Below, in pieces: positions 36,108 to 48,420 of a DNA stretch of 64,000 nt (the first letter of the stretch is position 1; every line of letters begins with the position of its first letter). Origin of the DNA: Comamonadaceae bacterium (GTDB lineage Bacteria; Pseudomonadota; Gammaproteobacteria; Burkholderiales; Burkholderiaceae_C); the NCBI GenBank assembly GCA_947443645.1, contig CANEXF010000003.1:62001-126000 (forward strand), given 5' to 3'. The notes under the pieces are model-generated. The model saw only the letters and a list, made by a program, of their open reading frames with translations. It was not told the DNA's origin and ran no database searches. The translations under genes were made by a program, and so were the position numbers.

Positions 36108-36673
36108 TGAGCCGCCCTGTCCGCGTCGGAAGCAACCGGGGCAGACGCCGTAGCGCCCTGGCCACCGGGCCGCCGGGCCAGAAACTGCTGCAGGCCGGCC
36201 AGCAAACTGCGTCCCGCGTCAGCCAGCGCGTGCGCGGGTATGTCGCCAAGCAAACGCGACAGGTCTTCCTCTATGTCCCAGCGTAAATTCTCCGCAAGCC
36301 AGCCCAGCTCTGCGGCCAGCTGCACATCGCCTTCAATTTTCACCGGCGGCGGCTTGCCCGCCATCAGCGACTGGAGCACCGCCGCGGCTGAATCCGAGGA
36401 CACGCTGATCAGCAGGTCCGGCTTGGGTGTGGCTGGAGCGCGGTCAAACAGTCCGGCAGGTGTGATCAACAGGTCGATGGCAAAAAGACCCCAGCGTACA
36501 TGCAGTACGCTGCCTTTTTTCCGGGCCAGGCGATCTTGTGCCTCTTTTTCCTGCATCAGGACATGGTTCAGGAAAAGTACCATGCGTTGCTGCCCTTCAT
36601 CGACCACCCAAGCGGGCGGCTGAAAACGACTTGCAATGGACTCCAGAAACGAAAAAGGGGACGTTGTGTTCAT
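36104..36673 (-). CDS. ubiJ: UbiJ, ubiquinone biosynthesis accessory factor (SCP2 domain)
   Basis: 189 residues with an N-terminal sterol-carrier-like SCP2 domain (about 15-120; [18 protein letters not shown], then [19 protein letters not shown]) and a C-terminal helical part. UbiJ binds lipid intermediates and organises the cytosolic Ubi complex. ATG 36673 ([12 protein letters not shown]) is preferred over an in-frame TTG seven codons upstream. The gene is weakly conserved in sequence but sits in the standard ubiE-ubiJ-ubiB order, here interrupted by a Tim44-like gene. Repeat copy A lies just upstream. Confidence 0.88.
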
Positions 36674-36748
36674 ACGTCCCCGATTTTGCAGCAAATTGAA
36701 GAAGTCCCTCGAACGCGCGAGCGATTGGAGGGGCTTTAAAGACCAGCC

Positions 36749-36835
36749 GGGGCCGCGGATCCGGCTTCGCCGGTCCGCAGGCGCAGCGGCCCCCCGGGGG
36801 GCAGGAAGCTACACGCAGTGAGCGACCGTGGGGGC
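36749..36835 (+). repeat. structured dispersed repeat, copy A
   Basis: About 87 bases. An outer stem GGGGCCGC / GCGGCCCC encloses an inner hairpin CCGGC-TTC-GCCGG (36761-36773), followed by GCCCCCCGGGGGGC, then CAC-GCA-GTG and a terminal GTGGGGGC. It fills most of the gap between the Tim44-like gene and ubiJ. Its GTGGGGGC end meets the stop codon of the Tim44-like gene. Other copies: 40721-40809, 44305-44393 and (partial) 44441-44491. Confidence 0.88.
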
Positions 36836-37815
36836 TATTGGAGAGCCTGTACTCCAGCCACCAGCCAGCCACTGCTACCAGATTTGGGCTTGGTCATGTT
36901 CCAGACTTCGCGGAAAGGACTGGCACCGGCTGAGGCGTCTTCGCGGATCATGCCGGAGAACTCCACGCTGGCGAGGTAGCTGTCACTGAGCTCTTCTATG
37001 CCCAGCAGTTTGGCATCGAGCATCACGACGTCGGTCTTGTTGATGCCACCACCGGTGTGCGACTCGCGGTCAGACAGCTGCACCTTGATCTGTTCCAGCA
37101 TCTCGTCGGTCATCATCGCGCGCAGGCTGTTGATGTCGGAACGGTCCCAGGCATCTTGCAAGGTGAGGAAATTGGTCTTGCAGGCTGTGAGGAAGCCTTC
37201 TGCGTCGAATCCTGCAGGCACGCCCCAGGACTGGGAGCCCAGCAAGGCCGAACCTATCATGGAGCCGGGAGCCGCAGCCGAGCCGTCCTTGCCGGCATCA
37301 AAAGCCGTGTTGTTTGCTTCCCAGGGTCGGGCAGATGAATCGTTGCCGACGTTTTGTGGGTTGTAGGCTCTTGGGGTTTCGGCGTTGCCGGCACCCTGAA
37401 AAGCATAAGGCGACCCACCCTGTCCGGCCGAACCCTCGCCCCGGAGTTTGCGCATCACAAAGCCGATCACCAGCATCACCACAAAAGCCAGCAAGGCAAA
37501 CATGATGACCTGACTGAACGCACCGCCCAAACCCAGGGACGAAGCCAGCCAGGCCAGCCCGAGGCCAGCGGCCAGACCGCCCAGCATCGCACCCCAAGGC
37601 TTTTTAGGCGCTACTGGTGCCGCTGCGGGTGCCGCAGGTGTGGCCGGTTTGGCGGTCTGTGTAGCGCCGCCAGGTGCGGCCTGTCGCTGCGTGACATTGG
37701 ACGACTGCTTGCCGACCGACTGACCACCGCCCAGGCGCTTGGCCTCGGCTTGTACCCCAGCGAAGGTCAGCGTGAGCGCCAACAGGACGGAAAAAATCGT
37801 GGTCCACATTTTCAT
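36835..37815 (-). CDS. Tim44-like domain membrane protein
   Basis: 326 residues: signal peptide or anchor (1-23), an Ala/Pro-rich linker (about 40-75), a glycine-rich hydrophobic region with one or two membrane helices (about 75-118; LGGLAAGLGLAWLASSLGL and FALLAFVVMLVIGFV), another flexible linker, and a C-terminal Tim44-like/NTF2-fold domain (about 200-325). In mitochondria Tim44 tethers the import motor to the membrane; bacterial versions have no settled function. It lies between ubiE and ubiJ, so it may serve the membrane-bound Ubi assembly; that is inference from position only. Confidence 0.85.
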   Translation of the reverse strand: MKMWTTIFSVLLALTLTFAGVQAEAKRLGGGQSVGKQSSNVTQRQAAPGGATQTAKPATPAAPAAAPVAPKKPWGAMLGGLAAGLGLAWLASSLGLGGAFSQVIMFALLAFVVMLVIGFVMRKLRGEGSAGQGGSPYAFQGAGNAETPRAYNPQNVGNDSSARPWEANNTAFDAGKDGSAAAPGSMIGSALLGSQSWGVPAGFDAEGFLTACKTNFLTLQDAWDRSDINSLRAMMTDEMLEQIKVQLSDRESHTGGGINKTDVVMLDAKLLGIEELSDSYLASVEFSGMIREDASAGASPFREVWNMTKPKSGSSGWLVAGVQALQ

Positions 37816-37867
37816 AAGGTCTCCTTGAGCTATTTTTTAATCTTGTTTAGAGGGCGTCAGCCGCGTT

Positions 37868-38599
37868 TCAACACTTGATTCCAACATGCAATGCCACAAC
37901 GCCGCCTGACATGTTGTGATAGTCCACATGACCGAAACCACCTTTATGCATCATGGCCTTTAATTCGTCCTGCCCCGGGTGCATGCGAATCGACTCGGCC
38001 AGGTACTGGTAACTTGAATCATCGTTGGCCACCAGCTTGCCCAGTTTGGGCAGCACCTTGAACGAGTACCAGTCATAAATTTTTTCCAGCGGCTTGGCGA
38101 CTTTGGAAAATTCCAGCACCAGCAGCTTGCCGCCGGGCTTGAGCACGCGGTTCATTTCGCGCAAGGCCACATCCTTGTGTGTCATGTTGCGCAAGCCAAA
38201 AGCCACTGTGACGAGATCGAAATGCGCATCGGGAAACGGCAGCTTTTCGGCGTCGCACACCAGCGTAGGCAGACTCAGGCCCGCATCAATCAGACGATTG
38301 CGCCCTTCGCGCAGCATGGCCTCGTTGATGTCGGTGTGCACCACCTGGCCACTTGCGCCCACCTTGGGCGCAAACGCCAGGGCCAGATCACCCGTACCGC
38401 CGGCAATGTCTAGTACCGACTGACCTTCCTTGACGTTGGCGACAAGAACCGTGTAAGCCTTCCAGGCCCGATGCAGACCCAGCGACATCAAATCATTCAT
38501 GACGTCGTACTTGGAGGCCACGGAGTCGAACACCCCGCGAACGCGCTTCGCCTTGTCGTGCTCATCGACGGACTGAAAACCAAAGTGGGTGCTTGACAT
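37868..38599 (-). CDS. ubiE: UbiE, ubiquinone/menaquinone C-methyltransferase
   Basis: 243-residue SAM-dependent methyltransferase for the C-methylation step of ubiquinone (and demethylmenaquinone, where present). The SAM-binding motif is [11 protein letters not shown], and the UbiE signatures [17 protein letters not shown] and [20 protein letters not shown] are clear. The length is close to E. coli UbiE (251). It lies in the minus-strand run DUF971-ubiE-tim44-ubiJ-ubiB. Confidence 0.97.
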
Positions 38600-38637
38600 A
38601 AGTGAATGCTAGGGGCCAATGCCCGGTTGATGATGAC

Positions 38638-38682
38638 AAGCCCCCTGCTGACGCCGGGCTATGTCGTGATTTAAGGGGGCTT
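38638..38682. other. hairpin between the DUF971 gene and ubiE
   Basis: AAGCCCCCT and AAGGGGGCTT pair over a 26-base loop in the 121-base gap. There is no T-run on the minus strand that carries the genes, so termination is doubtful. Confidence 0.3.
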
Positions 38683-38720
38683 TATGCTCGAAAAACAACA
38701 GTCAACGCTGCATGCGCAGA

Positions 38721-39134
38721 TCAGTGCGAGCCGCAAGCAGCGCCACCGGCGGCCAGCATGAGTGCGTCACGGTCGGCGCCAGCGGCTTGCAGTCTGCGCT
38801 GGTAGTCTGCCCAGAGCTGATCTTGCTCGGCACCCAGCTTGTAGAGGTAGTCCCAGGAAAAAATGCCGCTCTCGTGGCCATCGGAAAATATCGGCTTGAC
38901 GGCGTAATTGCCTATGGGTTCGAGTTCAAGCAGGTCGACTTCGCGCTTGCCGGTCTGCAGTACTTCCTGACCCGGGCCATGGCCCTGGACTTCTGCAGAC
39001 GGCGAATACACGCGCATCAGCTCAAATGGAATCTTGAACTGCGCACCGTCCGAAAATGCGATTTCGAGAATCCGCGACTGGCTGTGAACCGTCAGCGCTG
39101 TAGGGGTTGGAGCCCCGGCTTGAAGACCTGCCAT
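38721..39134 (-). CDS. DUF971 domain protein
   Basis: 137 residues with the DUF971/gamma-butyrobetaine hydroxylase N-terminal-like fold (about 12-105; LTVHSQSRILEIAFSDG, then PFELMRVYSPSAEVQG, VEPIGNYAVKPIFSDGHESG-type sequence and FSWDYLYKLG). Homologues occur as short stand-alone proteins and as N-terminal domains of 2-oxoglutarate dioxygenases; related proteins bind iron-sulfur clusters, but a role here is not established. It is upstream of ubiE in the same direction, as in many betaproteobacteria. Confidence 0.85.
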   Translation of the reverse strand: MAGLQAGAPTPTALTVHSQSRILEIAFSDGAQFKIPFELMRVYSPSAEVQGHGPGQEVLQTGKREVDLLELEPIGNYAVKPIFSDGHESGIFSWDYLYKLGAEQDQLWADYQRRLQAAGADRDALMLAAGGAACGSH

Positions 39135-39194
39135 GGTGTGATGCTTTATGAAAATAAACAGGCCGGCCGCACGATAAGCGCAGGCGGCCTGGTG

Positions 39195-42100
39195 TTAAAC
39201 CAGAACCCGCTCTATGCCGCCGTGGTTGGCCGCATCCACATAGCTGGGCAACCACTCTTTGCCCAGTATCTGGTTGGCCATTTCAACGACGATGTAATCG
39301 GCTTCGAGCAGACCGTTTTTCATGTCGTCGCCGTAGCGGCTCAGACCCTGCAGGCAGCTTGGGCAACTGGTCAGAATTTTGACGTTCTCATTGGCGCCCA
39401 GCGCGCCGGATGCTCGCAGTTCGGCTTCACCTTTTAGGAGCTCTTCTTCCTTGCGAAAGCGAATTTGCGTGGCAATGTCCGGCCGGGTCACGCCCAGCGT
39501 GCCCGACTCGCCGCAGCAACGCTCGTTTTTCAGCACGTTGTCGCCCAGCAGCGCCTTGACCGTCTTCATCGGCTCTTGCAACTTCATCGGGCTGTGGCAA
39601 GGGTCGTGGTAGAGATAGCCCTGGCCGGTGTTGAGTGTGATGCCTTTTTCCAGCAGGTACTCATGGATGTCTATGATGCGGCTGCCCGGAAAAATCTTGT
39701 CAAACTCATAGCCCTGAAGCTGGTCGTAGCAGGTGCCGCAGGACACCACCACGGTCTTGATGTCCAGGTAATTCAGTGTGTTGGCGACGCGGTGAAACAG
39801 CACCCGGTTGTCGGTGATGATCTTGTCGGCCTTGTCAAACTGGCCGCTGCCTTTTTGCGGGTAGCCGCAGCACAGGTAACCCGGCGGCAACACCGTCTGC
39901 ACGCCCGCATGCCAGAGCATGGCCTGGGTCGCCAGACCGACTTGTGAAAACAGGCGCTCGGAGCCGCAACCCGGAAAGTAAAACACCGCCTCGGTTTCGG
40001 CCGTCGTGTTTTTCGGATTGCGGATGATGGGGACATAGTCCTTGTCTTCAATGTCGAGCAGCGCGCGTGCGGTTTTCTTGGGCAAACCGCCTGGCATTTT
40101 CTTGTTGATGAAGTGAATCACCTGCTCTTTGATCGGCGATTTCCCCACCGTGGCCGGGGGCTTGGCGGTCTGCTTGCGCGCCAAGCGGCCCAGCAAGTCA
40201 TTGGCCAGGCGCTGGACCTTGAAGCCCACACCCACCATGGCGCTACGCATCAGCTTGATGGTTTGCGGATTGGTCGCGTTCAAAAAGAACATCGCAGCGG
40301 CGTTGCCGGGGCGGAAGGATTTCTGGCCCATCTTGCGCAGCAGGTTGCGCATGTTCATGGATACGTCGCCGAAATCGATATCCACCGGGCAAGGGCTCAG
40401 GCACTTGTGGCAGACCGTGCAATGGTCGGCCACGTCTTCAAACTCTTCCCAGTGCTTGACGCTGATGCCGCGCCGGGTCTGCTCTTCGTACAGAAAAGCC
40501 TCGACCAGCAGCGAGGTCGCCAAAATCTTGTTGCGCGGGCTGTAAAGCAAGTTGGCGCGCGGCACATGGGTGGCGCACACCGGCTTGCACTTGCCGCAGC
40601 GCAGGCAGTCTTTCACGCTGTCGGCAATCGCGCCTATGTCGGACTGCTGCATGATCAGCGACTCATGACCCATCAGTCCAAAGCTTGGCGTGTATGCATT
40701 AGTCAAATCCGAAGAGATTTGGCCCCCACGTTCGCTCACTTCGTGTAACTCGCTGCCCCCCGAGGGGGCCGCTGCGCCTGCTGCCTGGCGGAGCCAGTTC
40801 CGCGGCCCCTGTTTGAATGAAGAGACAGTCGGCTCTCCAGTTTCGTTCGATATCTGGGCAAATTCGGACTGCACACCAATGGATACGGGCGCTAGCAGCT
40901 CCTTATTTCGTAGCAGCTTGCCTTTGTTGAAACGCCCCTCGGGATCGATCCTGGCCTTGTAGTCGGCAAAGGGCTGAAGCTCGGCGTCACTCAGAAACTC
41001 CATCTTGGTGATGCCAATGCCGTGCTCGCCGGAAATCACGCCGTCGAGCGACCGCGCCAGCACCATGATGCGTGCAACCGCGCCGTGGGCGGCCTGCAGC
41101 ATTTCGTAGTCATCGCTGTTGACCGGCAAATTGGTGTGCACATTGCCGTCACCGGCATGCATGTGCAGCGCGGCCCAGACGCGGCCCTTGAGCACACGCT
41201 TGTGAATCGCCGTGCATTCGGCCAGTATCGGCAAAAACGCCCCGCCCGTGAAAATCGTCTGCAGCGGCGCACGCAACTGGGTTTTCCAGCTGGCGCGTAG
41301 CGAATGGTCTTGCAACTGCAGAAACAGCGGCTCAACATCCTTCAGCCAGCCAGACCACAGTGCGCGCACCTCGGTGACCAGCGCTAGCGCTTGCGCAACG
41401 CGGTCTTCAAGCAGCTCGGCCGAAGGAATCTCGTTGGCGTCGTCCGACTTGCCCAAAGGCAGATTACCCTTGAGAAAAAACTGCTCCAGCTCGTCACACA
41501 GCTTGATCTTGTTGGCCAGGCTGAGCTCGATATTGATGCGTTCAATGCCGTCGGTGTACTCGGCCATGCGCGGCAGCGGAATCACCACGTCTTCGTTGAT
41601 CTTGAAGGCGTTGGTGTGCTTTGAAATTGCCGCCGTGCGTTTGCGGTCCAGCCAGAATTTCTTGCGTGCTTCAGCGCTGATGGCGATAAAGCCCTCGCCG
41701 CTACGCGAATTGGCAATGCGCACCACTTCACTGGTTGCGCGGGCCACGGCATCGGCGTCGTCACCGGCAATGTCGCCAATCAAGACCATCTTGGGCAGGC
41801 CGCCGCGTTTGGACTTGGTGGCATAACCGACGGCGCGCAGATAACGGTCGTCCAGGTGTTCCAGGCCAGCGAGCAAGACCGGCGAGCCCAGGGCTTCGCT
41901 GCGCTTTTGCTCGGCAAACATGAAGTCCTTGATCTCGACGATGCTGGGCACGGCGTCCTTGGCATTGCCAAAAAACTCCATGCAGACGGTTCGCGTGTGC
42001 GCCGGCATACGGTGCACAATCCAGCGCGCGCTGGTGATCAGGCCGTCGCAGCCTTCTTTTTGTATGCCTGGCAAACCGCTCAGGAATTTGTCGGTGACGT

Positions 42101-43268
42101 CCTTGCCCAGGCCTTCCTTGCGAAAGCTTTTGCCGGGAATATCCAGGCGCTCGGTGCGCACTGGCGTCTTGCCATCGGCTTCAAAATATTTAAGTTCAAA
42201 GCTGGCCAGCTCGGCATCGTGAATCTTGCCCAGATTGTGGTTCAGCCGTGTCACTTCCAGCCACTGCGAGTCGGGCGTCACCATGCGCCAGGAAGCCAGA
42301 TTGTCCAGCGCCGTGCCCCAGAGCACGGCCTTTTTGCCGCCTGCATTCATGGCGATATTGCCGCCAATACAGGACGCTTCTGCCGACGTCGGGTCAACCG
42401 CAAACACAAAGCCACCTCGCTCGGCAGCATCGGCCACACGCTGCGTGACCACCCCGGCTTCGGTCCAGATGGTGGCTACCGGCTTGCTCAGGCCTGGCAA
42501 GACCTGCATTTCGACCTCGGTCATGGCCTCGAGCTTTTCGGTGTTGATGACCGCCGATTTCCAGGTCAGCGGAATCGCGCCGCCGGTGTAACCAGTGCCG
42601 CCGCCACGCGGAACAATCGTCAGGCCCAACTCAATACAGCCATTGACCAAGCCAGCCATTTCGACTTCGGTGTCCGGTGTGAGCACCACAAACGGGTATT
42701 CAACGCGCCAGTCGGTGGCATCGGTCACGTGAGACACGCGTGACAGACCGTCAAACTTGATGTTGTCCTTGAGTGTGAGCTTGCGCAGCTTGCGCTCGGT
42801 CAGCCGTCGCAACTCGGCCATGTCCTCGAATGAGGCGGAAAAGCGGCTGACAGCGGCTCTGGCAGCGTCGAGCAACTCGCCAACAATGGCGTCGCGCTGG
42901 CTGTCAACATCGGGCGTGCGGCGTTTTTCAACCTCGCCGAGGCGATGCTGCAAGGCCTCGACCAGCAATTTGCGGCGTTTGGGGTTGTCCAGCAGGTCAT
43001 CCTGCAAATAGGGGTTGCGCTGAACCACCCAGATATCACCGAGGACTTCATACAGCATGCGTGCGGAGCGGCCGGTGCGGCGCTCACCTCTGAGCTGGTT
43101 GAGCAAATCCCAGGCGCGGCTGCCGAGCAGGCGGATGACGACTTCACGGTCGGAAAACGACGTGTAGTTGTAGGGAATCTCGCGTATGCGAGCTTGATCG
43201 TGCTTGATGTCGCCGGCAACGGTGGCATCAAAAGAATGGAGTTCTTGGAGGGTAGTTGGAGCGTTCAT
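39195..43268 (-). CDS. giant FAD-linked oxidase / iron-sulfur oxidoreductase (DUF3683, GlcD/GlcF-like fusion)
   Basis: 1357 residues. Order: a DUF3683-type N-terminal domain (about 1-130), a FAD-binding PCMH domain ([18 protein letters not shown]), a FAD-oxidase C-terminal domain (with [14 protein letters not shown] and GEHGIG), a linker, a two-[4Fe-4S] ferredoxin part (Cys888/891/894/898 in [11 protein letters not shown]; Cys950/953/956/960 in [11 protein letters not shown]), and two CCG domains ([30 protein letters not shown]). It resembles D-2-hydroxyacid dehydrogenases fused to their electron-transfer subunit; the substrate is unknown. Residues 821-849 of the linker are encoded by a dispersed repeat (copy B). 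ATG 43268 ([10 protein letters not shown]) is chosen; the longer frame starts with no family similarity. Confidence 0.92.
40721..40809 (-). repeat. structured dispersed repeat, copy B, inside a coding sequence
   Basis: Reads in the gene's own direction and encodes residues 821-849 (GPRNWLRQ... to ...SERGG) of the giant oxidoreductase. It has the outer stem GGGGCCGC / GCGGCCCC, an inner hairpin CTGGC-TCC-GCCAG (a paired change from CCGGC / GCCGG in copies A and C), GGCCCCCTCGGGGGGC, CAC-GAA-GTG and the closing GTGGGGGC. The frame stays open through it. Confidence 0.9.
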
Positions 43269-43439
43269 CTTGAATAGCCAGCTGCTTGGCGGGAACGTAC
43301 AAGCCCGCATCCAGAGCCGAAGCACTATGTTAACGCAGGGTAGCATTCAGACCGGATCAAGAAAGAATGACCTCATGAAATCCAGCTTGTAGCCGGCAAA
43401 TGCGCGGCTGCGGGGCTGGTAACAACAACGAACCCCGCG

Positions 43440-44195
43440 ATGCCCCACCCTGTTTCTGTCACGCACTGGCCTTATCCGCGCTGGATCGCCCACCGCGGCG
43501 CAGGCCAGCTGGCGCCTGAAAACACGCTCGCGGCCTTCAAACTCGGCGCCCGCCACGGCTTTCGCATGTTCGAGTGCGACGTCAAGCTCAGCGCCGATGG
43601 CCTGCCCTTTCTGCTTCACGACGACAAGCTGGAGCGAACCAGCGATGGCAGGGGCGCTGCGGGCGATCGCACCTGGGCAGAGCTGTCCCGACTCGACGCT
43701 GGCAGCTGGCATTCGCCGGCTTTTGCCGGTGAGCCGCTGGCCAGCCTGGATGCGGTGGCCGATTTTTGCCTTGCGCAGGGCTATTTGCTCAACATCGAGA
43801 TCAAACCATCGCCCGGGCTGGAAGCCGTGACCGGCACCCGCGTGGCCCAGGCCGCGGCCAGACTCTGGAGAGATGCGGCGCCCCCGCCCCTGCTGAGCTC
43901 GTTTCAACCCGCGTCACTGCAAGCGGCCAGACTGGCCCAGCCCGAGCTGCCGCGGGCCTTGCTGCTCAACGAGTCCAGACCCGACTGGCTGCAAACAGCG
44001 CTTGAACTTGGCTGCGTCGCCGTGGTCTGCCAGCACCGTTTGTGGGATGAAAGCCGCGTGCACCAAGCGCGACAAGCCGGCCTCAGAACACTGGCTTACA
44101 CCGCCAACGACGAGTCAACTGTGCAAAAACTCATCACGCTGGGCCTGGACGGCATCATCACAGACCGGGTGGACCGGTTCGGACCCGGTACCTGA
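43440..44195 (+). CDS. ugpQ: glycerophosphodiester phosphodiesterase
   Basis: 251-residue TIM-barrel GDPD that cleaves glycerophosphodiesters to glycerol-3-phosphate and an alcohol. Metal and catalytic motifs are IAHRGAGQLAPENTLAAF (first catalytic His and Glu), FECDVKLSADGLPFLLHDD (second His) and LLNIEIKPSPG. There is no signal peptide, so it is the cytoplasmic UgpQ type. The C-terminal DGIITDRVDRF is typical. It is divergent from the giant oxidoreductase gene and stands alone, followed by a repeat-rich gap. Confidence 0.93.
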   Translation: MPHPVSVTHWPYPRWIAHRGAGQLAPENTLAAFKLGARHGFRMFECDVKLSADGLPFLLHDDKLERTSDGRGAAGDRTWAELSRLDAGSWHSPAFAGEPLASLDAVADFCLAQGYLLNIEIKPSPGLEAVTGTRVAQAAARLWRDAAPPPLLSSFQPASLQAARLAQPELPRALLLNESRPDWLQTALELGCVAVVCQHRLWDESRVHQARQAGLRTLAYTANDESTVQKLITLGLDGIITDRVDRFGPGT

Positions 44196-44244
44196 ACACT
44201 AGTTGCCGCAAGCGCTGCGGTCTCCGCAGGGAGCAACCTTAGCC

Positions 44245-44262
44245 GAGCTCAGGACGAACGGA
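44245..44262 (+). repeat. short dispersed motif GAGCTCAGGACGAACGG
   Basis: The same core (CTCAGGACGAAC) recurs at 31491-31502 after aspS. Such motifs are common extragenic repeats in proteobacterial genomes, often as halves of larger palindromes. Here it lies between the GDPD gene and repeat copy C. Confidence 0.45.
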
Positions 44263-44304
44263 ATCCAGACTAGGCAAGCCTGGGGTTGCGTTCCCATTCA
44301 AGCA

Positions 44305-44393
44305 GGAGCCGCGGAACCGGCTTTGCCGGGCCGCAGGCGCAGCGGCCCCCTCGGGGGGGCAGGAAGCTATACGCAGCGAGCGAGCGTGGGGGC
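44305..44393 (+). repeat. structured dispersed repeat, copy C
   Basis: Nearly the same as copy A, with outer stem GGAGCCGC / GCGGCCCC (one mismatch), inner hairpin CCGGC-TTT-GCCGG (44317-44329), GCCCCCTCGGGGGGGC and closing GTGGGGGC. It lies in the 300-base noncoding gap 44196-44495, which otherwise holds only copy D and the short GAGCTCAGGACGAACGG motif. Confidence 0.88.
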
Positions 44394-44440
44394 GTCGGTA
44401 TTAAGGGCCACAATTTTCCGCCGGGCCGCCCCAAGGAAAA

Positions 44441-44491
44441 TTAGCCCCCTCGGGGGGCAGAGAGCTACGCGAAGCGAGCGAACGTGGGGGC
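44441..44491 (+). repeat. structured dispersed repeat, partial copy D (right half)
   Basis: Holds the right half only: GCCCCCTCGGGGGGC, then CGC-GAA-GCG (paired change from CAC / GTG in copies A and B) and GTGGGGGC. The left half is replaced by a different sequence flanked by AATTTTCC and GGAAAATT (44411-44442), itself an imperfect inverted repeat. The right end lies 4 bases from the stop codon of the minus-strand gene at 44496. Confidence 0.8.
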
Positions 44492-44495
44492 AACA

Positions 44496-44786
44496 TCACC
44501 CCTTCCAGCCCCTAAGCAGCACCCACTGGCAGCTGGCCGCACCGACCACCAGCAAGGCATAGCTGGCCATCTTGCCGTCGCTGCCGAAGTACACCAGGCC
44601 AGCGACCAGCAGGGCCAGATTCACTATAAAAACAATAGCTGCTTGCGCCCATAGGCCGGTCACCAGCGGCCTTTTTGATCTGAAATATCGGGAGAAAAGA
44701 CGGGTCAACAACAACACACCGAGCGCCACAAAAGCAGCGGGCGCCATGAAGTTGAGCAAGTGGTCAGCCAGCAGATAAGCGGTCAT
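44496..44786 (-). CDS. hypothetical small membrane protein
   Basis: 96 residues from ATG 44786, with three hydrophobic helices (about 10-30, 40-64 and 70-90; MAPAAFVALGVLLLTRLF, IVFIVNLALLVAGLVYFG and YALLVVGAASCQWVLL). I recognise no named family. A longer frame to 44891 adds a non-hydrophobic stretch and is less likely. The codons for WAQAAI coincide with a match to the GATAGCT-type repeat core (44634-44657). It is divergent from hemA. Confidence 0.65.
   Translation of the reverse strand: MTAYLLADHLLNFMAPAAFVALGVLLLTRLFSRYFRSKRPLVTGLWAQAAIVFIVNLALLVAGLVYFGSDGKMASYALLVVGAASCQWVLLRGWKG
44634..44657 (+). repeat. match to GATAGCT-type repeat core inside a membrane-protein gene
   Basis: AATAGCTGCTTGCGCCC followed by ATAGGCC, the same core as at 47466-47520 and 58038-58088. 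On the gene strand it encodes WAQAAI within a membrane helix, so the match could also be partly coincidental. Confidence 0.45.
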
Positions 44787-44925
44787 TGCAAGGGGTCCAG
44801 CTTGGGGGCAGTCGGAGAAAAAGGAAAGTCTTGAGGACGCGTATTTGACGCTGCGCTCATCAGGCTGAAAAACTAATATTGCCTGCTTCAAGCCAGTCCT
44901 GCTGCTTCAATTTTATAATCTGTGA

Positions 44926-46215
44926 ATGTCAGTCTGGGCCCTTGGGCTAAACCATCACACCGCACCGCTCGATTTACGTGGGCGATTTGCGTTCACCATA
45001 GACCAGATTGCGCCCACTTTGACGGGTTTGCGCGAGTCGCTGGCGCGGCGACCTGAAGCGACCCTGCTTTCGACCTGCAACCGCACGGAAATCTATTGTG
45101 CCGGAGAGCGGCCCGACCTGGACCACGCGCTGGAATGGCTGGCTCACAGCGGCGGTGTCTCGCCAGAGCTGTTGCGCGCCCACGCCTACACGCTGCATGG
45201 CGACCAGGCCGCGCGTCACGCTTTTCGTGTCGCCAGCGGGCTCGACTCCATGGTGTTGGGCGAACCGCAGATTCTCGGCCAGATGAAAGACGCTGTGCGC
45301 GCCGCGGAAGACGCCGGCGCCATGGGCTCGACACTGCACCAGTTGTTCCAGCGCTCATTTTCTGTCGCCAAGGAAGTCCGCACCAGCACCGAAATTGGCG
45401 CGCACAGCATCAGCATGGCTGCTGCCAGCGTGCGGCTGGCCGGCCAGCTGTTTGAAGACCTGGGCGACATCAAGGTTCTGTTTGTCGGCGCGGGTGAGAT
45501 GATTGAGCTGGCCGCCACCCACTTCGCGGCCAAAAAGCCCAAGTCCATGGTGATTGCCAACCGCACGCTGGAGCGCGGCGAAAAACTCGCCCAGCGCTTT
45601 GGTGCCGAGGTGATGCGGCTGGCCGACCTGCCCAGCCGTCTGCACGAGTTTGATGCCGTCATCAGTTGCACCGCCAGCACCCTGCCCATCATTGGTCTGG
45701 GCGCTGTCGAGCGCGCTGTCAAGCTGCGCAAGCACCGGCCCATGTTCATGGTCGATCTGGCCGTGCCGCGCGACATTGAACCCGAGGTCAAGGCGCTGCC
45801 AGATATTTACCTCTACACCGTGGACGATCTGGCACAGGTAGTGCAAACCGGCAAGGACAGCCGTCAGGCGGCGGTGGCCGAGGCCGAGGTCATCATTGAT
45901 GCCGGTGTGCAGAACTTCATGCGTTGGCTGGGCCAGCGCGGCACCGTGCCGCTGATTCAGCAGCTCAATACGCAAGCCGACGAGTGGCGCGCACTGGAGA
46001 TTCAGCGCGCCAAGAAACTGCTGGCCAAAGGCGAATCGATTGATTCCGTGCTGGAGGCCCTGAGCCGCGGACTGACCCAAAAAATGCTGCACGGCACGCT
46101 GACGGAGCTGCATGCCGGCGACGTGAGCCGGCGTGAAGCCACGGCGCAGACGGTTTCCAGGCTGTTTCTGCGCGGGCAATTGCCCGACACGCGTCAAGAA
46201 GACAAAGAGCGTTAG
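44926..46215 (+). CDS. hemA: glutamyl-tRNA reductase
   Basis: Reduces glutamyl-tRNA(Glu) to glutamate-1-semialdehyde with NADPH, the first step of C5-pathway heme synthesis. The N-terminal [17 protein letters not shown], catalytic Cys51 (STCNRTEIY), [15 protein letters not shown] and the NADPH domain with [14 protein letters not shown] identify it. The length of 429 is normal. prfA and prmC follow on the same strand, the usual hemA-prfA-prmC order. Confidence 0.97.
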
Positions 46216-46319
46216 CGCAGAATTATTGACGCCGCCGGCCCTGCGCCGGCTCCCGAGCTGCAGCCGCGCCAGCGCCAGCGCCATTTCCAGAATTTTTTGC
46301 CCTGACGGCCCCAAGCCCC

Positions 46320-47435
46320 ATGAAACCCTTTCTCCGCCAAACCCTGGACCGCCAGCTGCTCAGGCTGCATGAGCTCGACGCCTTGCTGTCCGCCAGCGAC
46401 GTTGTCAGCGACCTGAACCGCTTTCGCAGCCTGACGCGTGAGCATGCCGAAGCCAGCCTGGTGGCCGAGCAGTACAACCGGCTCACCAGCCGCGAAGCCG
46501 ATCTGGCCAGCGCCCAAAGCATGCTGGCAGAAGCCAAAAATGAGCCTGAGATGGCGGCCATGGCCGAGGAAGAAATCAGCGCCGCCAAGGCCGACATCGC
46601 GCTGATTGACGAAGCGCTGCAGCTCACGCTGATCCCCAAGGACCCCGATGACGCGCGCCCGGCCTTTGTCGAAATCCGCGCCGGCACGGGCGGCGACGAG
46701 TCGGCGCTGTTCGCTGGCGACCTGTTTCGCATGTACACGCGTTACGCCGAACGCAAACACTGGCAGACCGAAATCATCAGCGAATCAGCCGGCGAACTGG
46801 GCGGCTACAAGGAAGTCGTGCTGCGCATAGACGGCCCTCGGGACGAGATGGGCGTGGGCGTCTATGGCAAGCTGCGTTTTGAGTCCGGCGGCCACCGCGT
46901 GCAGCGGGTGCCAGCCACCGAAACCCAGGGCCGCATCCACACCAGCGCCTGCACCGTGGCGGTGCTGCCCGAGCCTGACGAGGCCGTGGCTATACAGATC
47001 AATCCGGCGGACCTGCGCATAGACACTTACCGCGCCAGCGGTGCCGGCGGCCAGCACATCAACAAGACCGACTCGGCCGTGCGCATTACCCACTTGCCAA
47101 CCGGCATCGTCGCCGAATGCCAGGAGGGCCGCAGCCAGCATGGCAACAAGGCACAGGCCTTGAAAGTGCTGACAGCCCGCATTCATGAAAAAGACCGCTC
47201 CGAGCGTGCCGCCAAGGACGCGGCCATGCGCAAGGGCCTGGTCGGCAGCGGCGACCGCAGCGACCGCATACGTACCTACAACTTCCCGCAAGGCAGGCTG
47301 ACCGACCACCGCATCAACCTGACGCTTTACAAGCTCTTGAGCATCATGGAAGGTGATCTGGAGGACGTGTTGACCGCGCTGCAGGTCGCGCGTGGCGTCG
47401 AACAGCTGGCTGAACTGGAAACGGCGTCGCAGTGA
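46320..47435 (+). CDS. prfA: peptide chain release factor 1
   Basis: Recognises UAA and UAG and triggers release of the finished peptide. The codon-reading PAT motif is at 198-200 ([10 protein letters not shown]) and the catalytic GGQ at 243-245 ([15 protein letters not shown]). The length of 371 residues is about 10 more than E. coli RF1. PrmC, which methylates the GGQ glutamine, is encoded next. The 104-base gap after hemA contains a GCCGGC / GCCGGC hairpin (46234-46250) without a T-run. Confidence 0.97.
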
Positions 47436-47465
47436 TGGCTTGCCGGCCAGACTTCCCATCGAGCA

Positions 47466-47520
47466 TTAAAAAGGCCTATGACGCCCGTCTGGCGGGCGCA
47501 AGCAGCTATTTATTCAATAG
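47466..47520 (-). repeat. dispersed repeat with GATAGCT-type core, copy between prfA and prmC
   Basis: Read on the minus strand it starts AATAGCTGCTTGCGCCCG and ends ATAGGCCTTTTTAA; inside is a hairpin GCCCG-TCTGG-CGGGC (47483-47497). The same core stands before proB (58038) and within gpsA (10455). It occupies most of the 103-base prfA-prmC gap. Confidence 0.7.
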
Positions 47521-47538
47521 CATTCAGCGGGGCCGGTC

Positions 47539-48420
47539 TTGACCCAGCCAAGCGTCAGCCAGGCCCTGCAGGCTGCCAAAGCGCTGGGGCTGGAGCGTCT
47601 GGACGCCGAGCTGCTGCTGCTGCATGCCCTGGCCAGATCACCGCGCGAGCGCGCCTGGCTGCGGGCCCATGACAGTGACTTGCTGGAGGGCGCTGCAGCC
47701 CAGGCGTTTGACGCCTTGAGCCTCAGACGCGTGGCCGGCGAGCCGCTGGCCTACCTCGTTGGCTACCAGGAGTTTTTCGGGCTGACGCTGCAAGTCGATG
47801 CGCGCGTGCTGGTGCCCAGGCCGGATACCGAAACCCTGGTGCAATGGGCGCTGGAGCTGCTGCAGGCGCCCGGCATGGTGGCCAACCCGTCGGTGCTGGA
47901 CCTGGGCACCGGCAGCGGCGCGATTGCGATTGCCATCGCGCACAGCCTGCTGCAAGCCGGGCAAGCGGCGCAAGTCAGCGCGATCGACGCCAGCGCTGAC
48001 GCGCTGACAGTAGCGACTCAAAACGCCAGCCGGCTTGGCCTGAAGCTGCAGTTCATCCAAAGCCATTGGCTCGAGCAAATCAGCCAGCCGCAACAAGTCA
48101 TCGTCAGCAATCCGCCCTATATTGCCAGCGCCGACCCGCATCTGGCCGCGCTGCGCCACGAACCATTGCAGGCACTGACCGCAGGCAGCGACGGACTGGA
48201 CGACCTCCGGCAAATCATCGATCAAGCGCCCGCGCGCCTGTTGCCTGGCGGCTGGCTGCTGCTTGAGCACGGCTATGACCAGGCAGCGCAAGTGCGCGCC
48301 CTGCTGACCCTGCGCGGCTTTGCGCAGGTTCAAAGCCGCCTGGATCTGGCCGGCATTCAACGCTGCTCGGGGGGTCAATGGCCAGGACAGCGCAGCCAGG
48401 ATATGGAAATCACGGGATAA
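47539..48420 (+). CDS. prmC: peptide chain release factor N5-glutamine methyltransferase
   Basis: Methylates the glutamine of the GGQ motif of RF1 and RF2. The SAM site is [12 protein letters not shown] (121-132) and the catalytic NPPY is at 191-194. The N-terminal helical domain includes [19 protein letters not shown]. Translation appears to start with TTG 47539 ([10 protein letters not shown]); no ATG gives a complete N-terminal domain. The length of 293 fits the family (about 280). Confidence 0.95.

What the first reader, a model, noticed from the sequence alone, without database searches (positions are those of the whole stretch)
40721..40809. Dispersed structured repeat read in frame inside the giant FAD/Fe-S oxidoreductase
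Copy B adds 29 codons (residues 821-849) exactly in the linker between the flavin and the iron-sulfur halves. The frame stays open, and the sequence matches the noncoding copies A and C along its whole length. It looks like an insertion tolerated because it fell between domains and happens to be translatable, similar in idea to the palindromic elements found inside Rickettsia proteins. It could change the electron-transfer linker.
Basis: partly seen in the sequence, partly recalled or inferred. Interest (0 to 1): 0.72.

Follow-up and report, generated by a model that had tools for sequence, protein, structure and literature searches.

The report
Genomic repeat translated inside enzyme linker
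A short structured DNA repeat that normally sits between genes is read in frame as about 32 extra amino acids in the linker of a large bacterial redox enzyme, and the same repeat is found in the same way inside some other conserved proteins of related bacteria.

Summary
Window 40722-40817 (minus) is a 96-nt copy of a dispersed repeat (R1; at least 56 matching places in this Polaromonas genome), in frame as 32 residues between the flavin and Fe-S halves of a 1383-aa protein. Of 80 Polaromonas linkers measured (87 genomes), 5 carry R1 and 75 do not; linkers run from 6 to 66 aa. R1 has covarying hairpins, and one end abuts stop codons (25 of 53 copies within 10 nt; other end 0 of 53): REP-like, and very probably the published BRE repeat.

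New here: capture recurs. R1 lies in the same frame in a family-9 glycosyltransferase (6 of 30 loci) and a MoCF_biosynth protein (19 of the 20 best-scoring loci; also this genome), and in another frame in a topoisomerase IB. The upstream linker resembles a second dispersed repeat. In four glycosyltransferase genes the insert is nearly frozen at silent sites (pS 0.04; flanks 0.30-0.31).

Best reading: a tolerated, passive linker made from a mobile repeat. Intragenic REPs, RPEs and BREs are already in print: new variant of a known kind.

The parts
40722..40817 (-). R1 copy B, read in frame as [32 protein letters not shown] (residues 844-875 of the 1383-aa ORF)
   Evidence: profile match over positions 1-96, E 3.9e-25; end phase 0 relative to the codons
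40713..40910 (-). whole variable linker (198 nt, residues 813-878) between the FAD half and the Fe-S half
   Evidence: anchored comparison with orthologues: 18 to 213 nt in 160 loci, each a multiple of 3, no stop
40869..40915 (-). stretch resembling the second dispersed repeat R2, coding for [16 protein letters not shown]
   Evidence: iterated profile 40915-40869; a profile built from 20 copies elsewhere in the genome hits 40915-40877, E 1.4e-7 in 64 kb
39195..43346 (-). host gene, DUF3683 / FAD-linked oxidase / 4Fe-4S / CCG / DUF3400 protein; probable start at 43268 (M27)
36744..36835 (+). R1 copy A, intergenic, abutting the stop codon of the gene 36835-37815 (-)
44297..44393 (+). R1 copy C, intergenic
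44417..44491 (+). partial R1 copy next to copy C (model positions 26-96)
47468..47522 (-). R2 copy that led to the R2 family

Best explanation
Copy B is an R1 element, a 96-nt REP-like structured repeat of Polaromonas and its relatives that often lies just behind stop codons. It landed in frame in a linker that tolerates length change. Shown: the repeat family, its hairpins, the open frame, its absence from most orthologues measured, and similar in-frame copies in other proteins. Inferred: the encoded 32 residues act as a passive, flexible spacer; insertions that break the frame or hit a folded core are purged; and copies have entered this linker several times rather than once. The agent that moves R1 is unknown.
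For: At least 56 matching places in the genome. Of 53 near-full copies in the stretches examined, copy B is the only one inside the body of an ORF (five other overlaps sit at called ORF starts and were judged start mis-calls). Covarying hairpins. Linker census: R1 in 5 of 80 Polaromonas genomes, R1-like modules in 3 of 80 named loci, all on the coding strand and in one phase (one match stops a base short). The five carriers are scattered on a tree of the flanking protein, fewest changes 5. The four full-length linker copies are 0.81-0.90 identical to each other and 0.89-0.96 to the best other copy of G000. In-frame R1 in a Glyco_transf_9 protein in 6 of 30 loci, with a 12-24 nt gap in the other 24. 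In-frame R1 in a MoCF_biosynth protein in 19 of the 20 best-scoring loci and in this genome. Frame +1 in a topoisomerase IB.
Against: If the insert were merely tolerated, its silent sites should drift. In the glycosyltransferase they hardly do: pS 0.042 against 0.31 and 0.303 in the flanks, third codon positions variable 3 of 32 against 89 of 220. Recurrence rests on one quick FastTree tree with many weak forks and on incomplete genomes. The one Y1_Tnp gene found has no R1 in its 3.3-kb stretch. In G021 a stop codon stands in frame just upstream of R1 in the glycosyltransferase remnant near a contig end, so there the gene is broken or misassembled. The structure model was too poor to show a flexible linker.
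Confidence: 0.82

Rival explanations
1. The insert entered this linker once in an ancestor, was lost many times, and was later overwritten by other genomic R1 copies through gene conversion, so that it looks like several insertions.
For: Same orientation, phase and position in all five Polaromonas carriers; the upstream linker text of G065, G039 and G000 looks alike although G065 groups with short-linker genomes (likeness by eye).
Against: Needs many losses on the tree (fewest changes 5). In the glycosyltransferase inherited copies are not overwritten: 0.95-0.98 alike across four species against 88-94% for the best other scored copy in their own genomes.
Confidence: 0.3
2. The in-frame copies are kept because the hairpins or the DNA sequence do something inside the coding region, for example slow the ribosome at a domain boundary; the peptide is secondary.
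For: Silent sites almost frozen in the glycosyltransferase insert of four genomes; overwriting by other copies of the same genome is unlikely; stems covary in the family; REPs within 15 nt of a stop codon stall ribosomes (stated in PMC12306157, passages).
Against: Only one protein and four genomes tested, with few fourfold sites (1 of 16 against 47 of 114, p 0.005). A copy outside this gene in G059 is 96% identical to the G019 insert over 92 positions, so recent spread of one subfamily could give the same picture. Orientation in genes is opposite to that behind stop codons. The fold of copy B is no more stable than shuffles (z -0.16). MoCF copies differ by 0.178 on average and show no such clear picture. 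Most orthologues measured do without.
Confidence: 0.13
3. The residues are original protein sequence and the noncoding copies derive from it.
For: The frame is open in every carrier linker.
Against: Missing in 75 of 80 Polaromonas linkers; the same repeat is inside unrelated proteins and in dozens of other places in the genome.
Confidence: 0.02
4. Assembly or binning artefact.
For: Several carriers are draft genomes in hundreds of contigs.
Against: The window's genome is 99.97% complete in 50 contigs; the linker and its flanks were read from one continuous stretch in each of the five genomes.
Confidence: 0.02

Closest known systems
BRE, Beta-proteobacterial repeat element (Hot et al. 2011, PMC3110155; section on BRE read whole)
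   Same: About 90 bp, GC-rich, mostly intergenic, tandem arrays, Betaproteobacteria with the highest count (29) in Polaromonas sp. [quoted passage not shown]
   Different: The BRE sequence is not printed in the main text held, so identity was not checked letter by letter. That section does not say which proteins, which frame, or whether one site is hit again.
Intragenic REPs of the GTAG and CGTC families (PMC3733652; one section read whole plus passages)
   Same: Structured repeats close to the 3' ends of genes, mostly between co-directional or convergent genes; some lie in ORFs and encode 20-30 amino acids; two Xanthomonas recB genes carry REPs at about the same site; truB is a host gene there too.
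   Different: R1 was not shown to carry their end tags; the words Polaromonas and Comamonadaceae do not occur in that paper's main text.
Rickettsia palindromic elements, RPE (review PMC10969869, passages; one original paper was looked up and is not held)
   Same: Palindromic repeats inserted in frame in unrelated conserved proteins.
   Different: RPEs are about 150 bp and nearly half of those first reported sit in ORFs; in this genome copy B is the only near-full R1 copy found in an ORF body (one of 53), with one partial copy in the MoCF protein. Polaromonas is free-living (recalled).
E. coli REP / BIME behind stop codons (PMC12306157, passages)
   Same: One end close to stop codons.
   Different: No R1 near the one Y1_Tnp gene found here.

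Membership tests
BRE | 75-91 bp in Bordetella, about 90 bp in general; GC 63.7-78.9%, mean 69% | tested here: inconclusive
   model of 96 nt, slightly longer; mean GC 0.737, range 0.621-0.802, in 51 copies
BRE | present in Betaproteobacteria, abundant in Polaromonas, in tandem arrays | tested here: met
   matches in 138 of 200 genomes of the family, in the listed rows mostly the 3' half; three copies 105 nt apart at G000:C10:72484-72787
BRE | same sequence as the published BRE | not testable with these tools
   sequence is in a figure and a supplement that are not held
REP | palindromic structure | tested here: met
   95.1% of cells paired, 65 two-sided changes, 0 of 500 shuffles reach it; single-copy folding energy is not exceptional
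REP | mostly extragenic, near gene ends, rarely between divergent genes | tested here: met
   of 53 copies 32 between co-directional, 9 convergent, 1 divergent, 5 with a neighbour missing, 6 overlapping a called ORF; X end within 10 nt of a stop in 25 of 53, Y end 0 of 53 (crude gene caller)
REP | flanks a RAYT tyrosine transposase gene | tested here: not met
   one Y1_Tnp match in the genome; no R1 match and only chance-level R2 matches in the 3.3 kb around it
GTAG or CGTC REP superfamilies | terminal GTAG or CGTC tag at the foot of the stem | not tested
   no scan for the tag at the stem foot was made
RPE | in-frame insertion in unrelated conserved proteins | tested here: met
RPE | a large share of copies inside ORFs | tested here: not met
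   1 of 53 near-full copies in this genome lies in an ORF body, plus one partial copy in the MoCF protein
Known Rfam family | match above threshold | tested here: not met
   window 36600-47600 searched: one weak match elsewhere (RF03018 at 43679-43845, 20.6 against 82 bits), none on R1 or R2

The most novel reading that the evidence does not exclude
R1 is a genus-wide supplier of in-frame linkers whose coding copies are kept for their nucleic-acid structure: selection holds the hairpin DNA or RNA inside the message (silent sites frozen), perhaps as a translation pause between domains, while the amino acids themselves are almost free.
Probability: 0.1. Interest if true: 0.82.

Novelty: new variant of a known kind. 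Interest (0 to 1): 0.6.

Why it matters
It gives a comparative series (short, repeat-derived and double-repeat linkers) for one enzyme across 80 genomes, and further proteins with the same capture. That makes it possible to test how mobile intergenic repeats become protein sequence, whether they are neutral, and why the same frame returns. RPE-like capture is best known from Rickettsia; here it can be followed in Polaromonas, which has cultured species.

Tried and rejected
Original protein sequence: rejected by the census. A special open frame: not needed; frames +0, +1, +2 and -1 are stop-free in 41, 40, 32 and 38 of 51 copies, -0 and -2 in 22 and 21; single-base shuffles give 59-69%. So forward frames +0 and +1 are more open than shuffles and -0 and -2 less. 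A strict one-frame rule: not strict, since a topoisomerase IB carries R1 in frame +1 (its orthologues were not compared). A RAYT source: not supported. An Rfam family: none. Single-copy folding: no more stable than shuffles, so structure rests on covariation. AlphaFold2 of residues 195-1383 with 36 close sequences gave mean pLDDT 45.5 and says nothing. Long ORFs over R1: of 20 fetched loci plus one held locus for frame +0, three were MoCF; TruB (G048) and a GluQ-like protein (G002) have R1 at or before the start; the rest were judged shadow ORFs or native starts by eye. Of 20 loci fetched for frames +1 and -1, one topoisomerase IB. Frames +2, -0 and -2 were not searched. Match lists are cut at about 150 rows, so in-frame cases are a lower bound. 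The upstream codon alignment of G001 was wrong and was redone.

R2: with a profile that leaves out the linker copy, 41 of 148 orthologue rows hit in the linker at E up to 10, but only 16 below 1e-3 (some rows are the same genome twice); 34 hits lie outside linkers, 7 of them below 1e-3. R2 also hits a conserved small membrane protein without an obvious length change, so which way the likeness arose is open.

Changed on re-checking: identity among full-length linker copies is 0.81-0.90; the G021 stop codon and the 96% copy in G059 were added, and the odds of the structure reading and of the novel case were lowered by 0.02 for the latter.

Full report
What is there. The window lies in a genome (G000, 3.23 Mb, 50 contigs) of a genus that I take as Polaromonas, because unnamed genus members are identical in the tree rows to named records such as Polaromonas sp. 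JS666, CF318, YR568 and P. jejuensis. The gene at 39195-43346 on the minus strand codes for a 1383-aa protein with DUF3683, FAD_binding_4, FAD-oxidase_C, Fer4_8, CCG and DUF3400 domains. The repeat copy is at 40722-40817, 96 nt, 32 codons, in frame.

The repeat family. A search with copy B finds 56 places in the genome, itself included, with 40 of 193 candidates scored. A profile gives 53 near-full copies and 17 shorter ones in the window and the 37 stretches fetched. In 51 aligned copies a structure of three helices pairs in 95.1% of cells with 65 two-sided changes (17.7 +- 6.6 in shuffles; 0 of 500 reach it). The structure was drawn by hand on the same alignment, and the fold of copy B alone is not more stable than shuffles. 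With a simple codon-based gene caller, 32 copies lie between co-directional genes, 9 between convergent, 1 between divergent, 5 have a neighbour missing, and 6 overlap a called ORF. Of these six only copy B lies in the body of an ORF; the other five lie at called starts and I take them as mis-called. The end GTGGGGGC lies within 10 nt of a stop codon of a gene running into it in 25 of 53 copies, the other end in 0 of 53. In the family, 138 of 200 genomes match, in the listed rows mostly with the 3' half.

The linker in relatives. The linker was measured by fixed anchors in 80 of 87 Polaromonas genomes and in 80 named loci, some of them Polaromonas too and the rest relatives in Comamonadaceae and near it. 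Lengths in the 80 genus genomes: 18 nt in 24, 42 nt in 25, 54-90 nt in 25, 105 nt in 1, and 168-198 nt in 5. All 160 lengths are multiples of three without stops. R1 (E <= 0.01) is found in the five long ones (G000, G039, G048, G059, G065), and R1-like modules in three named loci (L060, L073 twice in tandem, L094). All are on the coding strand; eight of the nine matches end in codon phase 0, and the ninth (L060) stops one model position short, which fits the same phase. G071 (L145) and L127 carry a different proline-rich stretch (called repeat-like by eye). On a FastTree tree of the flanking protein the five carriers are scattered (fewest changes 5; two for the R1-like modules), with many weak forks. 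The four full-length linker copies are 0.81-0.90 identical to each other, while each is 0.89-0.96 identical to some other copy in G000. The G039 copy shares only the 3' module and pairs best with the G014 glycosyltransferase copy (0.92). This favours several captures, but loss plus overwriting is not excluded.

A second repeat. The upstream half of the linker matches a second dispersed family, R2 (consensus TGCTATTAAATAAATAGCTGCTTGCGCCCGCCAGTCGGGCGCTGCAGCCCTTTTT). A profile from 20 copies elsewhere in the genome hits the linker at 40915-40877 with E 1.4e-7 in 64 kb. In 148 orthologue rows the hit recurs in the linker at E below 1e-3 in 16 rows, and 41 rows up to E 10. R2 also matches inside a conserved small membrane protein at 44624-44676, with no clear length change, so the direction of the likeness is open.

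Other proteins. R1 is in frame, same orientation and same frame, in a Glyco_transf_9 protein: 6 of the 30 best-scoring loci have 102-144 nt where the other 24 have 12-24 nt. In a seventh, G021, R1 stands next to the C-terminal part of this gene near a contig end with a stop codon in frame upstream, so that gene is broken or misassembled there. In a MoCF_biosynth protein 19 of the 20 best-scoring loci hold R1 or part of it (E <= 0.0011); 18 matches end in codon phase 0 and one stops a model position short. The ranking favours carriers because both queries held the insert. Of 8 more MoCF loci, most picked for long gaps, G000 itself, G012, G030 and G054 (already among the 20) have parts of R1, and G023, G018, G005 and G039 none. 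In G000 the MoCF insert is itself interrupted in frame by a palindrome-like stretch that resembles the sequence beside the Y1_Tnp gene (likeness by eye). One topoisomerase IB (G056) carries R1 in frame +1. Because most protein queries were in frame +0, only the linker census is free of frame bias; carriers at one site may not be independent, so I give no probability for the shared frame.

Signs of selection. In four genomes the glycosyltransferase insert has pS 0.042 and pN 0.035, while the flanks have pS 0.31 and 0.303 and pN 0.046 and 0.024. Variable sites by codon position are 2, 2 and 3 of 32 in the insert and 22, 14 and 89 of 220 in the flanks; fourfold sites 1 of 16 against 47 of 114, Fisher p 0.005. 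Overwriting by other copies of the same genome does not explain it: the four inserts are 0.95-0.98 alike, the best other scored copies in those genomes 88-94% identical to the G019 insert. But a copy elsewhere in a fifth genome, G059, is 96% identical to it, so recent spread of one subfamily or exchange between species remains possible beside a nucleic-acid constraint. In MoCF the R1 difference between genomes (mean 0.178 over 105 pairs) shows no such clear picture against flank third positions (mean 0.396).

What is known. BRE (PMC3110155, section read whole) resembles R1 in size, GC content, hosts, tandem habit and occasional place inside coding sequence. REPs inside ORFs that encode 20-30 residues, and at about the same site in two Xanthomonas recB genes, were described in PMC3733652 (section read whole). 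RPEs are reviewed in PMC10969869 (passages). Ribosome stalling by REPs close to stop codons is stated in PMC12306157 (passages). My searches listed no title or abstract start on R1 captures in these proteins; they cover only the open-licence library, apart from the four papers named I saw listings only, and the BRE supplement might name some of these genes.

Verdict. The finding is real and its interpretation holds. It is one case of a recurrent process already known in kind. The nearly frozen silent sites and the repeated use of one frame deserve follow-up.

Noticed in passing
window 44624-44676: An R2 repeat copy lies in frame inside a conserved small membrane protein (ORF 44496-44891, minus; conserved from MTAYLL); orthologues keep the reading without clear length change, so R2 may be coding here by origin or by replacement.
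   Followed up: partly
L345 (G000:C32:4800-6800): The genome's own MoCF_biosynth gene carries a partial R1 in frame with a second palindrome-like stretch nested in it, also in frame.
   Followed up: partly
L278 (G048:C396) and L276 (G002:C218): A TruB gene and a tRNA-synt_1c (GluQ-like, recalled) gene have R1 directly at the N-terminus; a GTG in R1 with an upstream GGGAG could serve as start.
   Followed up: no
L145 and L127 linkers: The same FAD/Fe-S linker holds a different proline/glycine-rich, repeat-like insert (PSPQPSPESERGS..., SPPSGEGAEGRGEG).
   Followed up: no
L073 linker: An R1-like module is present twice in tandem, both in frame.
   Followed up: partly
L221 (around G000:C3:173808-174134): The only Y1_Tnp (RAYT-like) match in the genome has AATTGGGGTCAGACTCCAATT-type palindromes near it, not R1.
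   Followed up: partly
L353 (G021:C103:1-1200): R1 joins the C-terminal part of the glycosyltransferase gene with an in-frame stop upstream, near a contig end.
   Followed up: partly
L083 linker: A 46-aa linker of other origin in a Polaromonas MAG; not matched to R1.
   Followed up: no
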